Below are positions 503-53,326 of a stretch of DNA of 64,000 nucleotides, one piece after another (within the stretch, counting starts at the first letter, position 1; every line of letters starts with the position of its first letter). The notes under the pieces are model-generated. The model worked only from the letters and a program-made list of their open reading frames with translations, was not told where the DNA came from and made no database searches. A program made the translations under genes and the position numbers. This DNA is from Eublepharis macularius (lineage: Eukaryota; Chordata; Lepidosauria; Squamata; Eublepharidae): contig NC_072801.1 in the NCBI RefSeq assembly GCF_028583425.1, positions 64,247,766 through 64,311,765 of the forward strand, read 5' to 3'.

Positions 503-16245
<15,743 letters not shown>

Positions 16246-21689: not shown

Positions 21690-22031
21690 TTTGAATACCG
21701 AGGCTGACGGGCGGAGGGAGCAGTGGGAGGAGGGAGGGGGCTGGCCCTGGCGCTTGGTGGTGGCGGCCGCCATTTTGCTGCGGCGGGTCGGGTCTGCCTC
21801 GGCGGGGCCTGGTTAAGGATCAGCATCCCGGTGGGAGGGGTCGGCGAGGTCCTGAATAGCAGCGGCGAAGCCTGTGCAAGGGGAGAGGCCGAGCAGGGGC
21901 GGCCTGGGGGCCACGGATGGCGGTGGATTCTATCCGGCCGAGGCGGCGGCGCTGGGGCTGAGGCGGCGGCAGGAGGAGGCGGGGCAGGAGGCGCCTCCCC
22001 TCCCTCCTCACTCCTCCCCCCTCCCACCCAG
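21690..22031 (+). other. SRCAP: SRCAP noncoding exon 1 (left end approximate)
   Basis: Ends at a consensus donor, acccag/gtaaga, at 22031. The only ATG I see inside opens a 14-codon frame (21917-21961, MAVDSIRPRRRRWG) that stops before the exon ends, so the exon would be 5' UTR with a possible short upstream ORF. In human SRCAP the first exons are also noncoding. Confidence 0.6.
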
Positions 22032-22862
22032 GTAAGATGGCGGACCGGCCGGGCCTTGGCTCTTTTCGCTCACACCCACTTAACTGGAAGGGTGCAAGAC
22101 TCCACTTCGAGTCGGGAGGGAAAAGTGAGAAATCGAATGGGAAGAGGCGCGCGTGCGCCCCGCCGAAGCGGTGGCCTTTCGCGCGCGAGCGTGTGCGCGC
22201 GCCCTCCTTTCTCTCCTCTTACTCTGCTCTATGAATTCTGCTCCCCCCTGCCTATAGAGGGCGCACCAGTGGAGAGTGGTGGGCGCGAGAAGGGACCGAG
22301 CGAGTGTGAAGGGCGCACGCGTTTGTCCCAGCAACGGCCGGTCAAGGCGCGAGCTGTTCTCTCTCACCCTCCCCGCCGTAGCTCTTTCCTCGCGCGCCGC
22401 GAATCCAGCCGACCAACCAACTGCTGCCTTCTGCTCTGATGGGGGAGGGGCGAGTCGGGAAGCTGAGGGGACGGGGCTAGGGAGGGAAGGGGCCCATGGG
22501 GGGGAGGAGGAGTTGGGGAAGCAGGGCAGGGTCAAAGGGCAAGGGTCAAAGGGGGAAACCAGGGAAAGGGTGGCAAAAGGGGCTTTGGGAAGGGGGAAAC
22601 CAAAAGCCGTTGAATTTATACAGGGGAAGAGGGGTATCCGAAGGGGTCGTTGGTCATTCCAGGACAAGGGTTGTGAGGCAAAGGTGATGTGCTTAGAGGA
22701 TGAGGAATCCAAGGACACAGAAGTAAAGGGCTACAACTTGAAAAGACAGCTGAAGGGGTTACAGAGTGCTCGGGTGGCGAAGGGGTTGGGGTGTCCAAGG
22801 GCATTGGAGTTGGAGAGGTTTGGGATAAATATACAAGAAAAGGGAGGGATTTTATTTCTTAG
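22032..22862 (+). other. SRCAP: Candidate SRCAP intron 1 (short form)
   Basis: GC- and purine-rich sequence between the exon 1 donor and the acceptor ttttatttcttag at 22862. It contains stop-poor stretches in several frames, expected from low T content, so I do not call a gene here. Confidence 0.45.
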
Positions 22863-25800
22863 GGTCATTATACAGTGTAGGAAATTTTGAAAAACGAGAT
22901 TGGAAGTTTAAAAAGTTCTGTAGTCATGGAGTCTGAAGAGGGGAAGATAGGATCCCAAAGTGGTCACAGTGTAGAGGGAGCAATAAATCAAGATGTCTCT
23001 ATGGAAATATCCAGTAGTGAAGTGATAAAAGAGGTGGATGAGAAGGCACCAGCATTTAATCCAGAGGAAGCTGAGGGCTTGGTAGGGGCAAATCAGGATA
23101 TGGCTCAAAGTTTGGTGGAAGCTGCTCAGAGGCTTGTCGAGGAAGTAACCAAAGGAGCAATAGTATTGAGTAAGGTTTGGGGAGTGGCAGGACCAAGTCA
23201 GGGGATCACAGAAGAACTGGGGAGACTTGATCATGGAGACCTTAAGAATGTTGACGAGAAAAGCAAAACAGAGATGTTGGCGGGAGTGGGACAGGAGGAA
23301 ACACATGCTTTCGTGAGCCTACATCAGAGTAATGAAATACCATCTGTACGGGATCATGGGGAAACCCAGAGTTCTGTTGAAATGGAAGAAAAGGAGGTGG
23401 CCGAAGGGGGTGAAATAATAACTCTAGAAATGGGTGAGAGGGAGACTGAGGAATTGGCAAGACTGCATGGTGCAGATACTGAAAAAAGGAGTATACAAGA
23501 TGATCAGCACAAGGCAATAACTGGACTGGATGAGAGAGAGGTTGAGATCACCAGTAGGGTAGATGTAGCATCTGCAGTGGAGGAAGTTGAGGAGATGTTG
23601 GGCCCAGCTCAGATAAAGCTGGAGGGAGGGAGTAGAGAAGAGGTGGTTGAATCAGCTGTGAATTGGGGAGATCTGGATTTGGTAAGACTGAGAGAGGGGG
23701 CTAGTCAAAATGTAATGGGGCTGGAAGAGAATGTGGAACCTGCAGTAGAGCAGGAGGAAGCTGAGGCAATGCCAGGAATGGATCAGAAGGTGGCAGAGGA
23801 TGTGTCTGTAGATGAAGAGGGCCAGAGGGATTCCAAGGAGTTAGTGGGACCAGGTCAGGAGGAAATCAGTGTGTTAACTGGAGAGGAACTTGGGATATCA
23901 GCCTTGGATGAAGGGGAAGCTGGGGTGTTGGAACCAGGTCAGGAGGGGCCTAAGGAACCAACAGAAGGGGGCGAGGATGATAGGGTTTCTACACTGGGTC
24001 AAGCAAAGTCAGAGACTGTGACAGGAGTAGATTGGGAAGAGGCCAAAGGAGTTGGGACATTAACAGTGGCTGAGGGCTTGTTTGGGGGAATTGATGGAGA
24101 AGTTGAGGAGGGGGAGAAGTTAAAAGAGGATGTGATGACAGCAGTGGATAAAAAGGGGGTTGTGGAAATACCAAAAGCCCCTCAGGAAGCAGTCGAGGAG
24201 GTAATTGCAGAGAGAGATGTGGCATTATCAGTGGTTGAGGACTTGTTGGCAAATCAAAGAGAGACTGAGGAGAACATAATGCTAATGTTGGATTATGGGG
24301 AGGCTGAGGCAAAGTGGGTGAGCCCAGAGGGACAAGTGGCAACTGCAGCAGCTGAGGATTTGTTGGAGGCAAGCCTGACAGAATCTGCAAAGGTGTCTGG
24401 AAAGGAAGGAATGGCACCAGCAGTGGGTCAAGTCATGGCTGGAGAAGAGGCAGGGTGGGTGAGCAAAGAAACAGAATCAACTGTAAGTCAGAAGGAAGCA
24501 GGTATGGTGATAGAAATACAGGAGACGTCAGGAATGCATCTGGACGAAATCCCCGGGGAGCATCAAATTGTGGAAGCTGGAGCAGAAGAGAAGAAATCAG
24601 CCTCTCTCTATTCGGAACCTGTTATATCTCCCACCTTCTCCTCATCCATTACTAGAGACCCAGTAGGACCTGGGAAGGAAACAGGAGATGGAAAGGTGGC
24701 ACCTGCTGTGGATCTAGAGAAAGCTAAAGAAGGGGTGGGACTAGAGCAGGTTGCAGTTGTGGATGAGGAAGCATTACATGAGTATCTAGGGGATGCTAGA
24801 GAAATAATGGTATTAACTCAGGAAAAAGCGTTAGTTTTGGGCCCAGAATTAGAAGAGAAATTGGCAGAGCAGGAGATGACTGGAGTGGATACGGGAGAGG
24901 GGGTATCTGGATTGCCTCAGAAAAGCACTGAGAAGATGGCCAAGCCATGTATAGAAGAAGGTGTATTGGCCAGAGTTAGCTGGGCTGCAACAGATACAGG
25001 TTTGAGTCAAAAGGAAGTAGCACCAGAATTATTACAACCATTCTTGAGGGTGCCTGAAAAAGTGGACCGAACAGACTCAGGGATATCATCTCATTTGTCA
25101 CAGACCACTGTCACTGGAAAACCAAGCCAGCATCAGAGAGGTCCAGGGAAAAGAATTTTGGGTTTGGCAGGATTGCGGCAAGGGTCAGGAGTGATAGAAC
25201 ATTGTGGGATGACACGGTCAGCAGGAGTCGTTCATGGAGTGCTGGAACACAGGGCTCCAGGATTAATTATAACCAGTTTAACAGCACAGGTTCAGGCTGG
25301 GCAAAACAGATTGAAAAAGCGAGATTATAAGCGGCTGGAAACAGGGACTGTAGAAAAGAGGGAGACAAGATCAGCTGAACAGGTGCATGTTAGGACCACA
25401 GCAAAGGTGGATGGAGATATAGTCTTCATTGGCCACAGGACTGGAAGAGAAGGAATGTCATGTTTCTCAGAGGGGAAGCAGTTCAAGGCAGAGGAGGGGC
25501 AGCAAGTGCCAGTGCCTGAAGAGACAGGAATGGTGACTGATCAGAAGCAAGCAGATGCAGTCAAGCAGGAACAGGAAATTAGGGAGTTGATGATGCTAGG
25601 AAAAGAACTGAATGGCTTAGCAGGGCAGCATCTAGAAGAAGTACAGTTGCCACAACATAGTAGGCAGCTGACCCAAGATTATGAAATGCCAAGGCCCAGG
25701 TCTGCCTGGACTGCCAAGGTAGGACATGGTCATGGTCTTTCTTTAAGGCCATTGCGGGCAGAAATGAAAGGACAATTTGGCCTACTGGTGGTAGGCCAGG

Positions 25801-26332
25801 GTACAACCAAATCTGCAGGACATACACCTGAACCATCAAGATTTGGAACAGAAAGCAGGGTGTTGGGGCTTGCAAGCAGATCGGCTGATGTCCACTGGAT
25901 AAGGGAGGTGCTAAGACCAGAACGGACACCCTCTCCACTCTCTGTAGCAGGTCATGGCTCAACAACAGAAGGGAGTCCTGACTTGTCAGCAGAGAAGTGT
26001 TACCCCGGTATTGTAAAAGGGAAGCAAGAATTAAAAGATTGGCGTGATGGGGTGATGGGCATAGCAATTAGAAGATACAAAGCAATGAGGCTGGCAATGT
26101 GGGGTGAAGGCCCAGCTGGCTTGCAGGTGAAGGGGAGGAAGGTGTCCGGGGGTTTGGAAAGCGTTCGGGATAGTGTCTTTCTGGGACAGATTGACAGGAA
26201 GGGACTGAAGTTGGTGCAGCGTGTGAAAAGTGAAAATATGCCAGCATTGGCAGTAGAAGGAAAGGAGCTGAATGATATTTTGGCACAGGGTATAGGGTTA
26301 ACAGAGTCAGAACAGAGACATCAGTTTTCTAG
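22863..26332 (+). CDS. Uncharacterised giant exon, 1,136-codon frame; possible SRCAP N-terminus
   Basis: I do not recognise this protein. A good acceptor (ttttatttcttag) precedes 22863. The first ATG downstream, at 22926, has a purine at -3 and G at +4, and opens a single frame that runs to TAA at 26334-26336. No other frame is open for long, which argues for real coding constraint. The frame closes right at a donor: the last codons read ttt tct ag/g taa with gtaact as the donor. The predicted product starts MESEEGKIGSQ and is acidic and rich in Glu, Gly, Val and Ala, with degenerate repeats (AEGL/VEDLL and GxGQEE-type blocks). The last 350-400 residues are more basic (KRILGLAGLRQGSG, NRLKKRDYKRLE). 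No catalytic motif, signal peptide or membrane segment is seen. It could be the first coding exon of an extended SRCAP, a gene nested in intron 1, or a newly arisen coding exon. Confidence 0.6.
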
Positions 26333-26772
26333 GTAACTATTTTAGGAACATGAGGAAGGTTCAGTGGACTGGAGAATATTGGATTAAGAGCCACGATTGT
26401 GTTAAAAAAAAAGGAATAAACAGCCCCAAGTTGAGGTTAGAGAAGCACAGAATAAAACAGAGCTAAGAAAAAAAGGATAGCAAATAGAGTTGGGTTACAG
26501 GATTGGGTGGGTTAGTAGAATCAAGCTAGGAGAAGGAATGCTACACTGGACAGTGAGATGAGGGTAATGGACAGAATATTAACACTTCTGGAGCAAAAGT
26601 GGGTGCGTAGGAAAGTTAAGGCAGGCCAGGGAACAGAATATTTGAGGTTGTGAGTTCTTGGGGTCAGTGGTAATGAACATAAAGGATACCATGCAGACAT
26701 CCCAGAATCCTCAAGTGGAAGAGTAAGTAAGGGATGTGTTCTATTGGTGCTGCTACGTAGCACCCCAAACAG
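26333..26772 (+). other. Candidate small intron after the giant exon
   Basis: Donor ag/gtaact at 26333. Three possible acceptors end at 26760 (tacgtag), 26772 (caaacag) and 26792 (cttcccatag). The first two keep the reading frame of the giant exon; the third has the best pyrimidine tract but only fits a start at the ATG at 26795. Confidence 0.45.
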
Positions 26773-27104
26773 GTTCTTGCCTCTTCCCATAGGCATGGAT
26801 TTGGTAGCTGGTGCTTACAATAAAACTCTTCACTGCAACCCGCAGACAGGCCACCCCCGTGCTGTCTGCGTTACAATCAAGGAGAGACAGTTGTTTGGCC
26901 AAAATTTTGGTAGAGATGTTGAGGAGCAGGGGAGGGGAGAAAGGATCCGGAGCCAAAGGAACAGACACTTGTACAACTATCACCAAAAAGATGTTTGCTG
27001 TCCTGGAATAAGAATCTCACCTCCTTACAGGAGTAGTCTTCCTCAGGAAAGCGAAACCCTGGAAGTGGAGCCTGACAAGCAAGAAGAGTTCTCAGCTCAC
27101 AAAG
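26773..27104 (+). CDS. SRCAP: Candidate upstream SRCAP coding exon (start 26761, 26773 or 26793)
   Basis: Open frame through FLPLPIGMDLVAGAYNKTL and onward to EEFSAHK, ending at a donor aaag/gtacag in phase 1. The next exon (29370) begins with 'at', giving gat (Asp), and stays open to the canonical SRCAP ATG. If transcription enters at the 26793 acceptor, the ATG at 26795 (G at +4) would start a product 166 residues longer than canonical SRCAP. No known domain is seen. It could instead be 5' UTR that is open by chance. Confidence 0.45.
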
Positions 27105-29369
27105 GTACAGATGGCAGTGGATGCATTTGGGGAACTGGCTTTTACAGAGGAGTGCTAAAGAGAGACTTGCTGGGTGTTTTGCTGAAACTGAAGCTAGGTT
27201 TAGTTCACTCCCAAGGTGGTTTTTTTTGGGGGGGGGTAATTTCTGTGGTCATTGATGGGTCAAACTATATTATGTGATAAGATCTAATGACCACATACCA
27301 GTAGTGCACCAGAGATTACTACAGCATCTCAAAGGCAGAAAGTGCATTTTACAAGTATTATAACTAACACACATCCATTACCATAGTGGGAAAAAAATGG
27401 AAAGTCTTTGACTTTAAGCTGTAAAAAGTCTCTGATCAGTGACCTTGTTTGCCCTTGTTCACATTCACTCTGCTTCATGTTTGCCTTTCATTCCTTTTCT
27501 AGTCTGGATAAGAATGTAGAGGTGGAGTATGCCACTTTCTAACTATTGGGGCTTCAAATGCAAACTTTATGAAGGCAGATAACTGTTGTGTTCCATTTCG
27601 GATGATGAATAGAAAACCTATTTGTTGCCTTCTTGTTATGGTGGTTTGCAAGCTGACTTTGGGACAGAGTTTCCTGATTATGCTAATTTAAACATACTGG
27701 TTCCCAAACTTTATACTTCGTTTCACCAGAGAATGATTTCTTACAGATTGTGAGACCTCTCAGTAAGGTCTGTGTTGCTTCCATTTGATGTTCTGTTTAT
27801 CTTTAAATAAATGATAGGCAGTTCCTGATCCCTCCCCTTCATTTTCACTGTTGAAACTGCTCACAGTGCACTGGTGTAAATTGGCCACTTGCTGATTATT
27901 GGCCAGTCTGTTTGGGGAAATGTTACATTTCCTAGACTGAGGTTTGCTGATTAAAGAGAATGCAGTTAATCAATCCAGTAAACATTAGTTGTATGTCTAA
28001 CTGCATCACCTGTGTCAGATCAATTTATACAAGGAATGGGATGGTGGATGTAGGTAGCCATGTTGGTTGAAAGAAAGATCCTAAAACGAAAGTCGTGAAG
28101 TATTTTTTATTAGGACCAACTGAAGTAACAAAACTGTATAGGAGCTTTCTGAACTTCACAATTTTTCACTGGACTGAATGTTAAAAAAACCTAAATGGGT
28201 GCTGTTAAAATGTTTCAGGCCCCGATCTTAAGACCTGTTATCTGCATCTTACGTAGAATGTCTTGTAGGCTTGACTAGATTTGTGGTATTGAGCAGAGCT
28301 AGAACCACTTTCTACCTTCTAGTCTTCTAGGAAGGAAAAATAGCCACTGGTATATTAAAAGCATTATTTGATCATATGTTTCTGTAGCACCAAAAAGATG
28401 CAGATCACTTCAAAGGCCAAGAGCAGAGTAAAAATTTGGTAGTCGTTATGTTAACAAAATGGGAGATTATTTTAGATGATGCCCATGGTAGACAGTAATT
28501 GGAAACTAAAATGAGTAGCACTTGAATCTGGGTTGTTGGTAATTGAAAATTTAATTACTGAGTTCTAACCGTTAATCTTACATTTTTGGTTGATTTTTTT
28601 TCTCCTTTAATAATTTATTCGCATAATATTTTGTCACTTATGTTTATAGAGAGCCTACATTAGCTATTGGCATATGATACACACCCAAGTAGAAAGTTAA
28701 TTTGATTAGAAAATTACTACATAACATACAGAAGTACAGATCCAACACAACCCCACATTCTAACCCTTTCAGTGTGACCCAGCTCAGTTTGCAGAAAGTT
28801 TGCATGCAGTAGAGAGCTTAGAAACTTCTGTTTAGCCATGTATTGGCGGTAATCATGCCATTGTGCAGGATTGGGAATGACTTGAGGTCATTTAAGTGTA
28901 ATTAAAGAGAGTTAACTTGCAAGACCAGTTTAGTTGCTGGAATAGTACTTCAGTCTGCAAGCAGCTTCACATGTTCTGTACTTCATAGAAATCTCTTCTG
29001 ATTTTTTTTAACACACCCTTGCAAATTAAAAAAAGGTGTTGAAGCTTCATGCTAGGAAAAAGTTAACTGCTGTGTAAAGAGCACAAAGTAATTCATTGTA
29101 GTTTTTGCCCCCACCCCCTTTTTTGTGATACTAGGGAGAAGGTATGATGAACCATTAGGGCACAAATGATGCTATTATTTTTGAGGAATGTGCAGTTGCT
29201 GACTTTTTTTACACCATAGTTGCTAATTATTTTTTTACACCATGATTAATGTATGTTCCTCAGAAAAATTATCCTTTAGCCTGGACTTGAGAGTAGAGTC
29301 TTTAGTTAAGATCTCTTCAGCTTGGCTTTGATCACAATGTGATTGACGTTACTTTCTGAATTTTTTCAG
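27105..29369 (+). other. SRCAP: SRCAP 5' intron
   Basis: No coding signal. It contains a decayed SINE at 28050-28165. It ends in the acceptor gaattttttcag before 29370. Confidence 0.55.
28050..28165 (+). repeat. Decayed SINE of the 'gccatgttggt' family
   Basis: taggtagccatgttggttga followed by a degraded body with taggaccaactgaagtaac. Same family as the copies at 10612 and 37918. Confidence 0.5.
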
Positions 29370-29557
29370 ATAATTCTGAGACGGGCAGTCCCGAGCGCAG
29401 GCTGGGCTGCCAGAGAACCCAGGAGCTGGATAGCTCTTCCCAGTGGCTGGCTGACCAGAATGAGGCCGGTTCCCAGCATGCACTGGAGCAGGACACAAGC
29501 ACTACAACCACAAACGAAGCTATTGGGACGAGAGGCAAAGAGCAAGAGAGAATTAAA

Positions 29558-53326
<23,769 letters not shown>

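What the first reader, a model, noticed from the sequence alone, without database searches (positions are those of the whole stretch)
22863..26332. Undescribed 1,136-codon single-exon frame between the SRCAP promoter and SRCAP
Seen: one frame stays open for about 3.4 kb while the other five do not, in sequence with enough T to give many chance stops. The first ATG (22926) has a good start context, and a strong acceptor lies just upstream. The predicted protein is acidic, with degenerate AEGL/VEDLL and GxGQEE-type repeats and a more basic end. I know of no protein like it. Inference: it is a real coding exon, either an extension of SRCAP or a separate gene.
Basis: partly seen in the sequence, partly recalled or inferred. 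Interest (0 to 1): 0.88.

Follow-up and report, generated by a model that had tools for sequence, protein, structure and literature searches.

The report
Giant coding exon inside SRCAP gene
Just inside the SRCAP chromatin-remodeller gene of an unnamed animal lies what looks like a real protein-coding stretch of 1,136 codons for which no relatives were found; by its splice signals it most likely gives SRCAP a huge, mostly acidic front end, though no RNA or related genome was available to prove it.

Summary
The open frame is real: ATG 22926 to TAA 26334-26336, 1,136 codons, no internal stop where about 70 are expected from flat composition and 41 from position-specific composition. The other two + frames hold 92 and 67 stops. 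Base use by codon position is coding-like beyond mere openness in five of six blocks, and at null level in the flanks. DNA and protein have one match each in the 2.24-Gb genome. PDB, Pfam and viral contigs gave no match.

Best reading: an alternative giant first coding exon of SRCAP. The frame reaches a donor at 26332. From there a 74-nt exon (27031-27104) and the exon at 29370 keep it open into the human-like SRCAP start, adding 1,223 residues. Splicing to 26793, the best acceptor, breaks the frame. The paralogue EP400 in the same genome also starts with an oversized exon, unrelated in sequence.

Main rival: a separate protein ending at TAA 26334, with AATAAA at 26415 and 26451. The coding signal weakens in the last quarter. 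The claims of a strong acceptor and of repeats did not hold. No RNA or orthologue was available.

The parts
21900..22031 (+). 3' part of the GC-rich, presumably non-coding SRCAP exon 1; donor CAG|GTAAGA after 22031. The start of the exon was not determined.
   Evidence: Donor score 11.0, best of 21990-27300; sequence; exon 1 role by inference
22863..22925 (+). 5' non-coding part of the giant exon after a moderate acceptor (TTTTATTTCTTAG|GGT); no ATG inside
   Evidence: Acceptor 4.9, rank 13 of 563; no ATG
22926..26332 (+). Giant coding exon, 1,135 full codons plus 2 nt, ending at donor TAG|GTAACT (phase 2)
   Evidence: Open frame, statistics, donor 6.9
26334..26336 (+). TAA that ends the frame if the donor at 26332 is not used
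26415..26456 (+). Two AATAAA hexamers (26415, 26451): possible intronic poly(A) site of the rival reading
26793..27104 (+). Alternative exon with the best acceptor of 22032-29500 and ATG at 26795; perhaps a start for a short SRCAP form. 26795-27030 scores as non-coding.
   Evidence: Acceptor 11.6; codon score -13.1
27031..27104 (+). 74-nt connecting exon (SSLPQESETLEVEPDKQEEFSAHK) that keeps the giant frame in SRCAP's frame
   Evidence: Top of 15 open candidates; in-frame path
29370..29602 (+). SRCAP exon with the human-like start Met at 29558; open upstream of it in the same frame
   Evidence: Match of the joined downstream exons to human SRCAP residues 1-249; acceptor 11.2; Met position

Best explanation
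The stretch 22863-26332 is a real coding exon of the SRCAP gene: an alternatively used, giant first coding exon. When exon 1 (donor 22031) is joined to the moderate acceptor at 22863, translation starts at the first ATG, 22926, and reads up to the donor at 26332. Two nucleotides of a codon are carried over to a 74-nt exon (27031-27104) and then to the exon at 29370, so the frame runs without a stop into the start that matches human SRCAP. The product is SRCAP with 1,223 extra N-terminal residues: about 600 strongly acidic ones (net charge -49 and -44 per 300), then a mildly acidic to mildly basic part. When the exon is skipped (exon 1 to 26793 or 29370), a short, human-like SRCAP is made. The most likely action of the long arm is as a flexible acidic histone-binding or partner-recruiting arm in front of the HSA/ATPase module that handles H2A.Z-H2B. 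Shown here: open and coding-like frame, single copy, in-frame path, matching phases. Inferred: splicing, expression and function.
For: No internal stop against 41-70 expected and coding-type position bias beyond openness. The coding signal begins near the acceptor. The stop begins 2 nt after the last base before a donor of score 6.9, one of 12 donors of at least 6.9 in the frame (my count from the list). Among 15 candidate middle exons open in SRCAP's frame, 27031-27104 ranks first on splice plus codon score and needs phase 2, which the donor at 26332 has; phase was not used in the ranking. With a codon table trained on other exons (two SRCAP pieces, one FBRS piece; gene names of the training pieces by recall), 27032-27103 scores +8.8 (other frames -1.4, 3.3) and 29372-29555 scores +15.9 (other frames 1.6, 10.9), but 26795-27030 scores -13.1 and 27107-27215 scores -13.7. 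Joined protein: 1,319 codons, no stop, human-like Met after 1,223 residues. The human-like Met is overlapped by an out-of-frame uORF 29460-29606, so an upstream start would make sense. EP400 in the same genome has a 1,340-nt first coding exon with its ATG 26 nt inside.
Against: The acceptor 22863 (4.9) and the donor 27104 (4.1) are weak, and better acceptors lie inside the frame (25104: 8.6; 25951: 8.0). The coding signal fades from about 25.6 kb. The codon signal of the connecting pieces is modest: 3.5% of 678 stop-free 24-codon intron windows and 13% of 158 stop-free 62-codon windows (overlapping windows) do as well; the position bias of the joined pieces was reached in 16 of 400 simulations. 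By splice scores alone the path ranks fourth of the 15 open paths among 437 with a middle exon. Two poly(A) hexamers follow the stop. Human SRCAP begins at the inner Met. No RNA or orthologue was examined.
Confidence: 0.52

Rival explanations
1. A separate protein: exon 1 is spliced to a terminal exon at 22863, translation runs 22926-26336, and the message ends at poly(A) signals 26415 or 26451. The SRCAP promoter thus makes a free, mostly acidic 1,136-aa protein by intronic polyadenylation, instead of or beside SRCAP.
For: TAA at 26334 followed by AATAAA at 26415 and 26451, with a GT-rich stretch after the second. Two such hexamers in 200 nt occur in 0.18% of simulations with regional and 1.7-3.5% with local composition. 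The only phase 1 donor above 4 in 25900-26336 for a direct join to 29370 is 26103, at 4.1.
Against: A donor of 6.9 ending 2 nt before the stop, and a phase-matched exon chain into SRCAP, would be coincidences. AATAAA is not rare in such A-rich sequence: at least one in 18-25% of local simulations.
Confidence: 0.3
2. Both: a composite exon that is either spliced on into SRCAP or ended by the intronic poly(A) site, so the same N-terminal arm is made free or attached.
For: Donor and poly(A) signals are both present.
Against: No direct evidence for either use.
Confidence: 0.12
3. A recently dead coding exon or relic that happens still to be open.
For: Weak acceptor; weaker position bias in the last 186 codons (15 of 400 simulations reach it).
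Against: Not one stop in 1,136 codons where 41-70 would be expected without constraint.
Confidence: 0.05
4. By-product of a purine-rich, R-loop-type strand asymmetry downstream of the promoter, without coding.
For: Purine fraction of at least 0.62 in 37 of 41 500-bp windows starting 22301-26301, beyond the frame on both sides.
Against: The same composition gives longest runs of about 110-120 codons on average and 247 at most, and the other + frames are full of stops. Flanks with the same skew show no position bias (31 of 200 and 109 of 200 simulations reach the observed value).
Confidence: 0.01

Closest known systems
SRCAP (SNF2-related CBP activator protein), SWR1-type remodeller
   Same: The frame can be joined to a gene whose first human-like exons match human SRCAP residues 1-249 (E 6.5e-111).
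   Different: The human SRCAP chain in PDB starts at the inner Met; the arm has no match among solved-structure sequences.
EP400 (p400), paralogue of SRCAP
   Same: Also starts with an oversized first coding exon: 1,340 nt with ATG 26 nt after the acceptor in this genome. Human p400 carries about 700 residues before the segment that matches SRCAP's start region.
   Different: No sequence similarity to the SRCAP arm (best E 1.0 in a two-sequence BLASTP). Donor phase 0 rather than 2, strong splice sites (10.8, 10.0), purine fraction 0.51.
Drosophila Domino isoforms (PMC7239659, passages read)
   Same: A SWR1-type ATPase gene diversified by alternative splicing.
   Different: Domino isoforms are identical for the first 2,008 residues and differ at the C-terminus; here the N-terminus would differ.
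Intronic-polyadenylation terminal exons (e.g. titin novex-3, recalled, not searched by name)
   Same: Large exon with its own stop and poly(A) signals inside an intron.
   Different: Here the exon also ends at a frame-keeping donor.

Membership tests
SRCAP gene product (N-terminal extension) | Frame joins the human-like SRCAP start without a stop by GT-AG splicing | tested here: met
   26332-27031/27104-29370 path, 1,319 codons and 0 stops through the exon ending 30125
SRCAP gene product (N-terminal extension) | Downstream exons are SRCAP | tested here: met
   phmmer to human SRCAP 1-249, E 6.5e-111
SRCAP gene product (N-terminal extension) | Spliced RNA linking the giant exon to SRCAP | not testable with these tools
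   No RNA data
SRCAP gene product (N-terminal extension) | Extension present in known SRCAP proteins | tested here: not met
   Human SRCAP chain begins at the inner Met; the arm matches no PDB chain up to E 10. Only PDB sequences were available.
EP400 N-terminal region | Sequence similarity | tested here: not met
   human p400 chains are in the library; own-genome EP400 exon, best E 1.0
EP400-like exon architecture | Oversized first coding exon, ATG close after the acceptor | tested here: met
   1,340 nt with ATG offset 26 versus 3,470 nt with ATG offset 63; exon limits in both by sequence signals only
Alternative terminal exon by intronic polyadenylation | Stop followed by poly(A) signal within the intron | tested here: met
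   AATAAA at 26415 and 26451; use not shown
Known protein domain family | Match to any Pfam model | tested here: not met
   0 families up to E 1; the four other window frames in the same call also gave 0
Transposon- or virus-derived gene | Further copies in the genome or relatives in viral contigs | tested here: not met
   One match in 2.24 Gb by DNA and one by protein; in viral contigs 9 stretches matched a peptide pattern, none encodes a relative

The most novel reading that the evidence does not exclude
In this animal SRCAP exists in two forms. The long form carries a 1,223-residue, largely acidic N-terminal arm encoded mainly by one 3.4-kb alternative exon, and the same exon can also end at its own poly(A) site to release the arm as a free protein, tuning H2A.Z exchange. 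The arm arose inside the first intron of SRCAP with no detectable relatives.
Probability: 0.1. Interest if true: 0.75.

Novelty: new variant of a known kind. Interest (0 to 1): 0.58.

Why it matters
SRCAP is the catalytic core of the complex that puts histone H2A.Z into promoters. A form with a front end of over 1,200 residues, or a free protein of that size made from its promoter, would mean that a basic chromatin machine has been remodelled in this lineage. It would also show that a very large, probably disordered coding exon can sit inside a first intron with no detectable relatives. It is directly testable with RNA and genomes of related species.

Tried and rejected
Chance frame in T-poor sequence: rejected. 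R-loop or purine skew as the cause: the skew is real and wider than the frame but does not make such a frame. Internal protein repeats: not above shuffles; the short DNA repeats listed were not pursued. Upstream frame 22258-22890 in another phase as an earlier coding exon: open for 210 codons, but codon scores are mostly at or below zero, so it is not included. Direct join to 29370: the only fitting donor above 4 is 26103, at 4.1. Join to 26793: the frame breaks (read). Rfam on the whole window at gathering thresholds: nothing. PDB, Pfam and viral contigs: nothing for the frame.

Literature: search listings only for (1 of 1 listed; 6 of 6; 3 of 3; 8 of 16; 10 of 19; 10 of 12; 6 of 6; 8 of 42, none of the eight holding the word SRCAP). 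No title or abstract start that I saw describes such an SRCAP exon; this is weak evidence. Passages were read in three papers. The reptile or lizard identity of the genome was not tested. Orthologue dN/dS, RNA and peptide tests could not be run; metagenome scans were capped at 0 and, apart from the window's own genome, the genome collections are prokaryotic.

Slips in my scripts. In one search, two SRCAP control segments (29556-29602 and 30288-30474) were given out of phase; their right-phase columns read +0.7 and +6.5, and 29884-30125 reads +22.7. In one search, three of five reference donors and four of six reference acceptors were misplaced (-99) and are not used. The script found no site for its nuclear-signal pattern. 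Antisense frames reach up to +0.32 per codon in places.

Full report
Observation. The frame is there as described: 22881-26336 open from stop to stop, ATG 22926, TAA 26334-26336, 1,136 aa. Stops in the other two + frames over the same stretch number 92 and 67, and in the - frames 48, 37 and 26. Simulated sequences of the same local composition give longest runs of 108-121 codons on average on the + strand and 247 at most (300 per Markov order 1-3). By block of 190 codons (the last of 186), 10.9-12.7 stops are expected from flat composition (sum about 70) and 4.6-9.4 from position-specific composition (sum 41); none is seen.

It is more than open. A null in which the frame is forced to be open reaches the base-by-codon-position bias in 0 of 400 simulations for each of the first five blocks and in 15 of 400 for the last. 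G is 38-58% at position 1 and 13-27% at position 2. The same measure is at null level in the flanks: 22356-22925 (31 of 200), 26337-26766 (109 of 200) and 27217-27786 (194 of 200). A codon table trained on 22926-25199 scores this frame positive from about 22876; outside its training part the score falls to about zero from 25.6 kb on. Three-base periodicity likewise drops, from 8-19 in the windows starting 22801-24601 to 1.5-5.6 in those starting 24901-26101. A table trained on other exons (two SRCAP pieces, one FBRS piece; names by recall) prefers this frame over the other two + frames in all six blocks, with scores from +36.5 down to -4.4 in the last. So the last quarter is open without exception but compositionally less marked.

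What it is not. It has one DNA match and one protein match in the 2.24-Gb genome, itself (the tool scores only its best candidates), so there is no sign of a repeat family or duplicated gene. PDB sequences up to E 10, Pfam up to E 1 and viral contigs give nothing. The reported repeats do not exceed shuffled sequence. The purine-rich strand (at least 0.62 A+G in 37 of 41 500-bp windows starting 22301-26301) is wider than the frame and cannot explain it.

How it connects. Exon 1 ends at a strong donor, 22031 (11.0). The acceptor at 22863 scores 4.9 and ranks 13 of 563 AG sites. No ATG lies between it and 22926, whereas an exon starting at the better acceptor 22258 (7.5) would carry four ATGs first. 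At the 3' end the frame meets a donor at 26332 (6.9), 2 nt before its stop. Joined to 26793, the best acceptor (11.6), it ends after ten codons; joined directly to 29370 it ends after the junction codon (read). Joined to 27031 (8.4) it continues SSLPQESETLEVEPDKQEEFSAHK, and from the donor 27104 (4.1) into the exon at 29370 and on to the Met at 29558, which aligns with residue 1 of human SRCAP. Of 437 tried paths with one middle exon (donors above 4 in 25900-26336, acceptors above 4, second donors above 3), 15 are open, plus one direct join; this path is fourth by splice scores alone, and the second uses the same 26332/27031 junction with a longer middle exon, 27031-27215. Ranking 15 open middle exons by splice plus codon score, without using the upstream phase, puts 27031-27104 first (21.3; next 15.7 for an overlapping one and 11.1), and it needs exactly the phase that 26332 offers.

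Coding signal of the link. With the table trained on other exons, 27032-27103 scores +8.8 (other frames -1.4, 3.3) and 29372-29555 scores +15.9 (1.6, 10.9) in the SRCAP frame, while 26795-27030 scores -13.1 and 27107-27215 scores -13.7. This is modest: 3.5% of 678 and 13% of 158 overlapping stop-free intron windows do as well, and the position bias of the joined pieces is reached in 16 of 400 simulations. A known SRCAP exon, 29883-30125, does worse on that last test (68 of 400) and another piece, 49646-50216, better (1 of 400).

Rival end. AATAAA occurs at 26415 and 26451. Two in 200 nt have a chance of 0.18% with regional and 1.7-3.5% with local composition; at least one, 7% and 18-25%. A terminal-exon protein therefore stays possible, and both uses may occur.

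Paralogue. In the same genome EP400 (found with a recalled human stretch, and confirmed by phmmer to human p400 residues 1-448) starts with a 1,340-nt exon, ATG 26 nt after a strong acceptor (10.8), donor 10.0, phase 0. So the sister gene uses the same layout, although the two N-termini are unrelated in sequence. The weaker sites around the SRCAP exon suggest alternative rather than constant use (inference).

Function. The first 600 residues carry net charges of -49 and -44 per 300; residues 601-760 carry -9, 761-960 +3 and 961-1136 +7. There is one SUMO-interaction-like stretch (DGDIVFI, residue 829; motif recalled). In passages of PMC13426437, SRCAP is said to hold a second H2A.Z-H2B chaperone domain beside the ATPase N-lobe, with YL1 chaperoning the dimer; a passage of PMC10853557 names Chz1, YL1 and Swr1-Z as handlers of H2A.Z-H2B. 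A flexible acidic arm ahead of the HSA module could add histone or partner binding. This is inference; I could not fold the protein, disorder was not computed, and no domain was found.

Uncertainty. That it codes now: about 0.94. That it is joined to SRCAP in at least one transcript: about 0.64 (best explanation plus the 'both' reading). No orthologue, RNA or general animal protein database was available, so the arm may already be annotated in related species; my eight literature listings (four of them cut) do not exclude that.

Noticed in passing
42288-42826 (+), within frame 42133-43026: A 42-nt unit repeated 13 times, in frame, in what looks like an SRCAP exon (14-aa unit of the type [14 protein letters not shown]): a minisatellite in coding sequence.
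   Followed up: no
22301-26800 (+): A 4-kb purine-rich strand asymmetry (GC skew up to 0.475, AT skew about 0.25) just downstream of the GC-rich exon 1, wider than the giant exon: a candidate R-loop region or splicing-enhancer-rich stretch.
   Followed up: partly
29460-29606 (+): Out-of-frame upstream ATGs (29460, 29478) open a uORF that overlaps the human-like SRCAP start Met at 29558.
   Followed up: partly
22258-22890 (+): A second, 210-codon open frame in another phase between exon 1 and the giant exon, after an acceptor-like site (7.5); codon scores do not support coding.
   Followed up: partly
36649-37045: 50-bp intronic minisatellite of 8 copies.
   Followed up: no
28049-28520: One or two old dispersed repeats in the intron, with 16 further matches in the genome (a lower bound).
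   Followed up: no
13511-13966 (-): Open stretch resembling a CR1-type LINE reverse transcriptase (name by recall).
   Followed up: no
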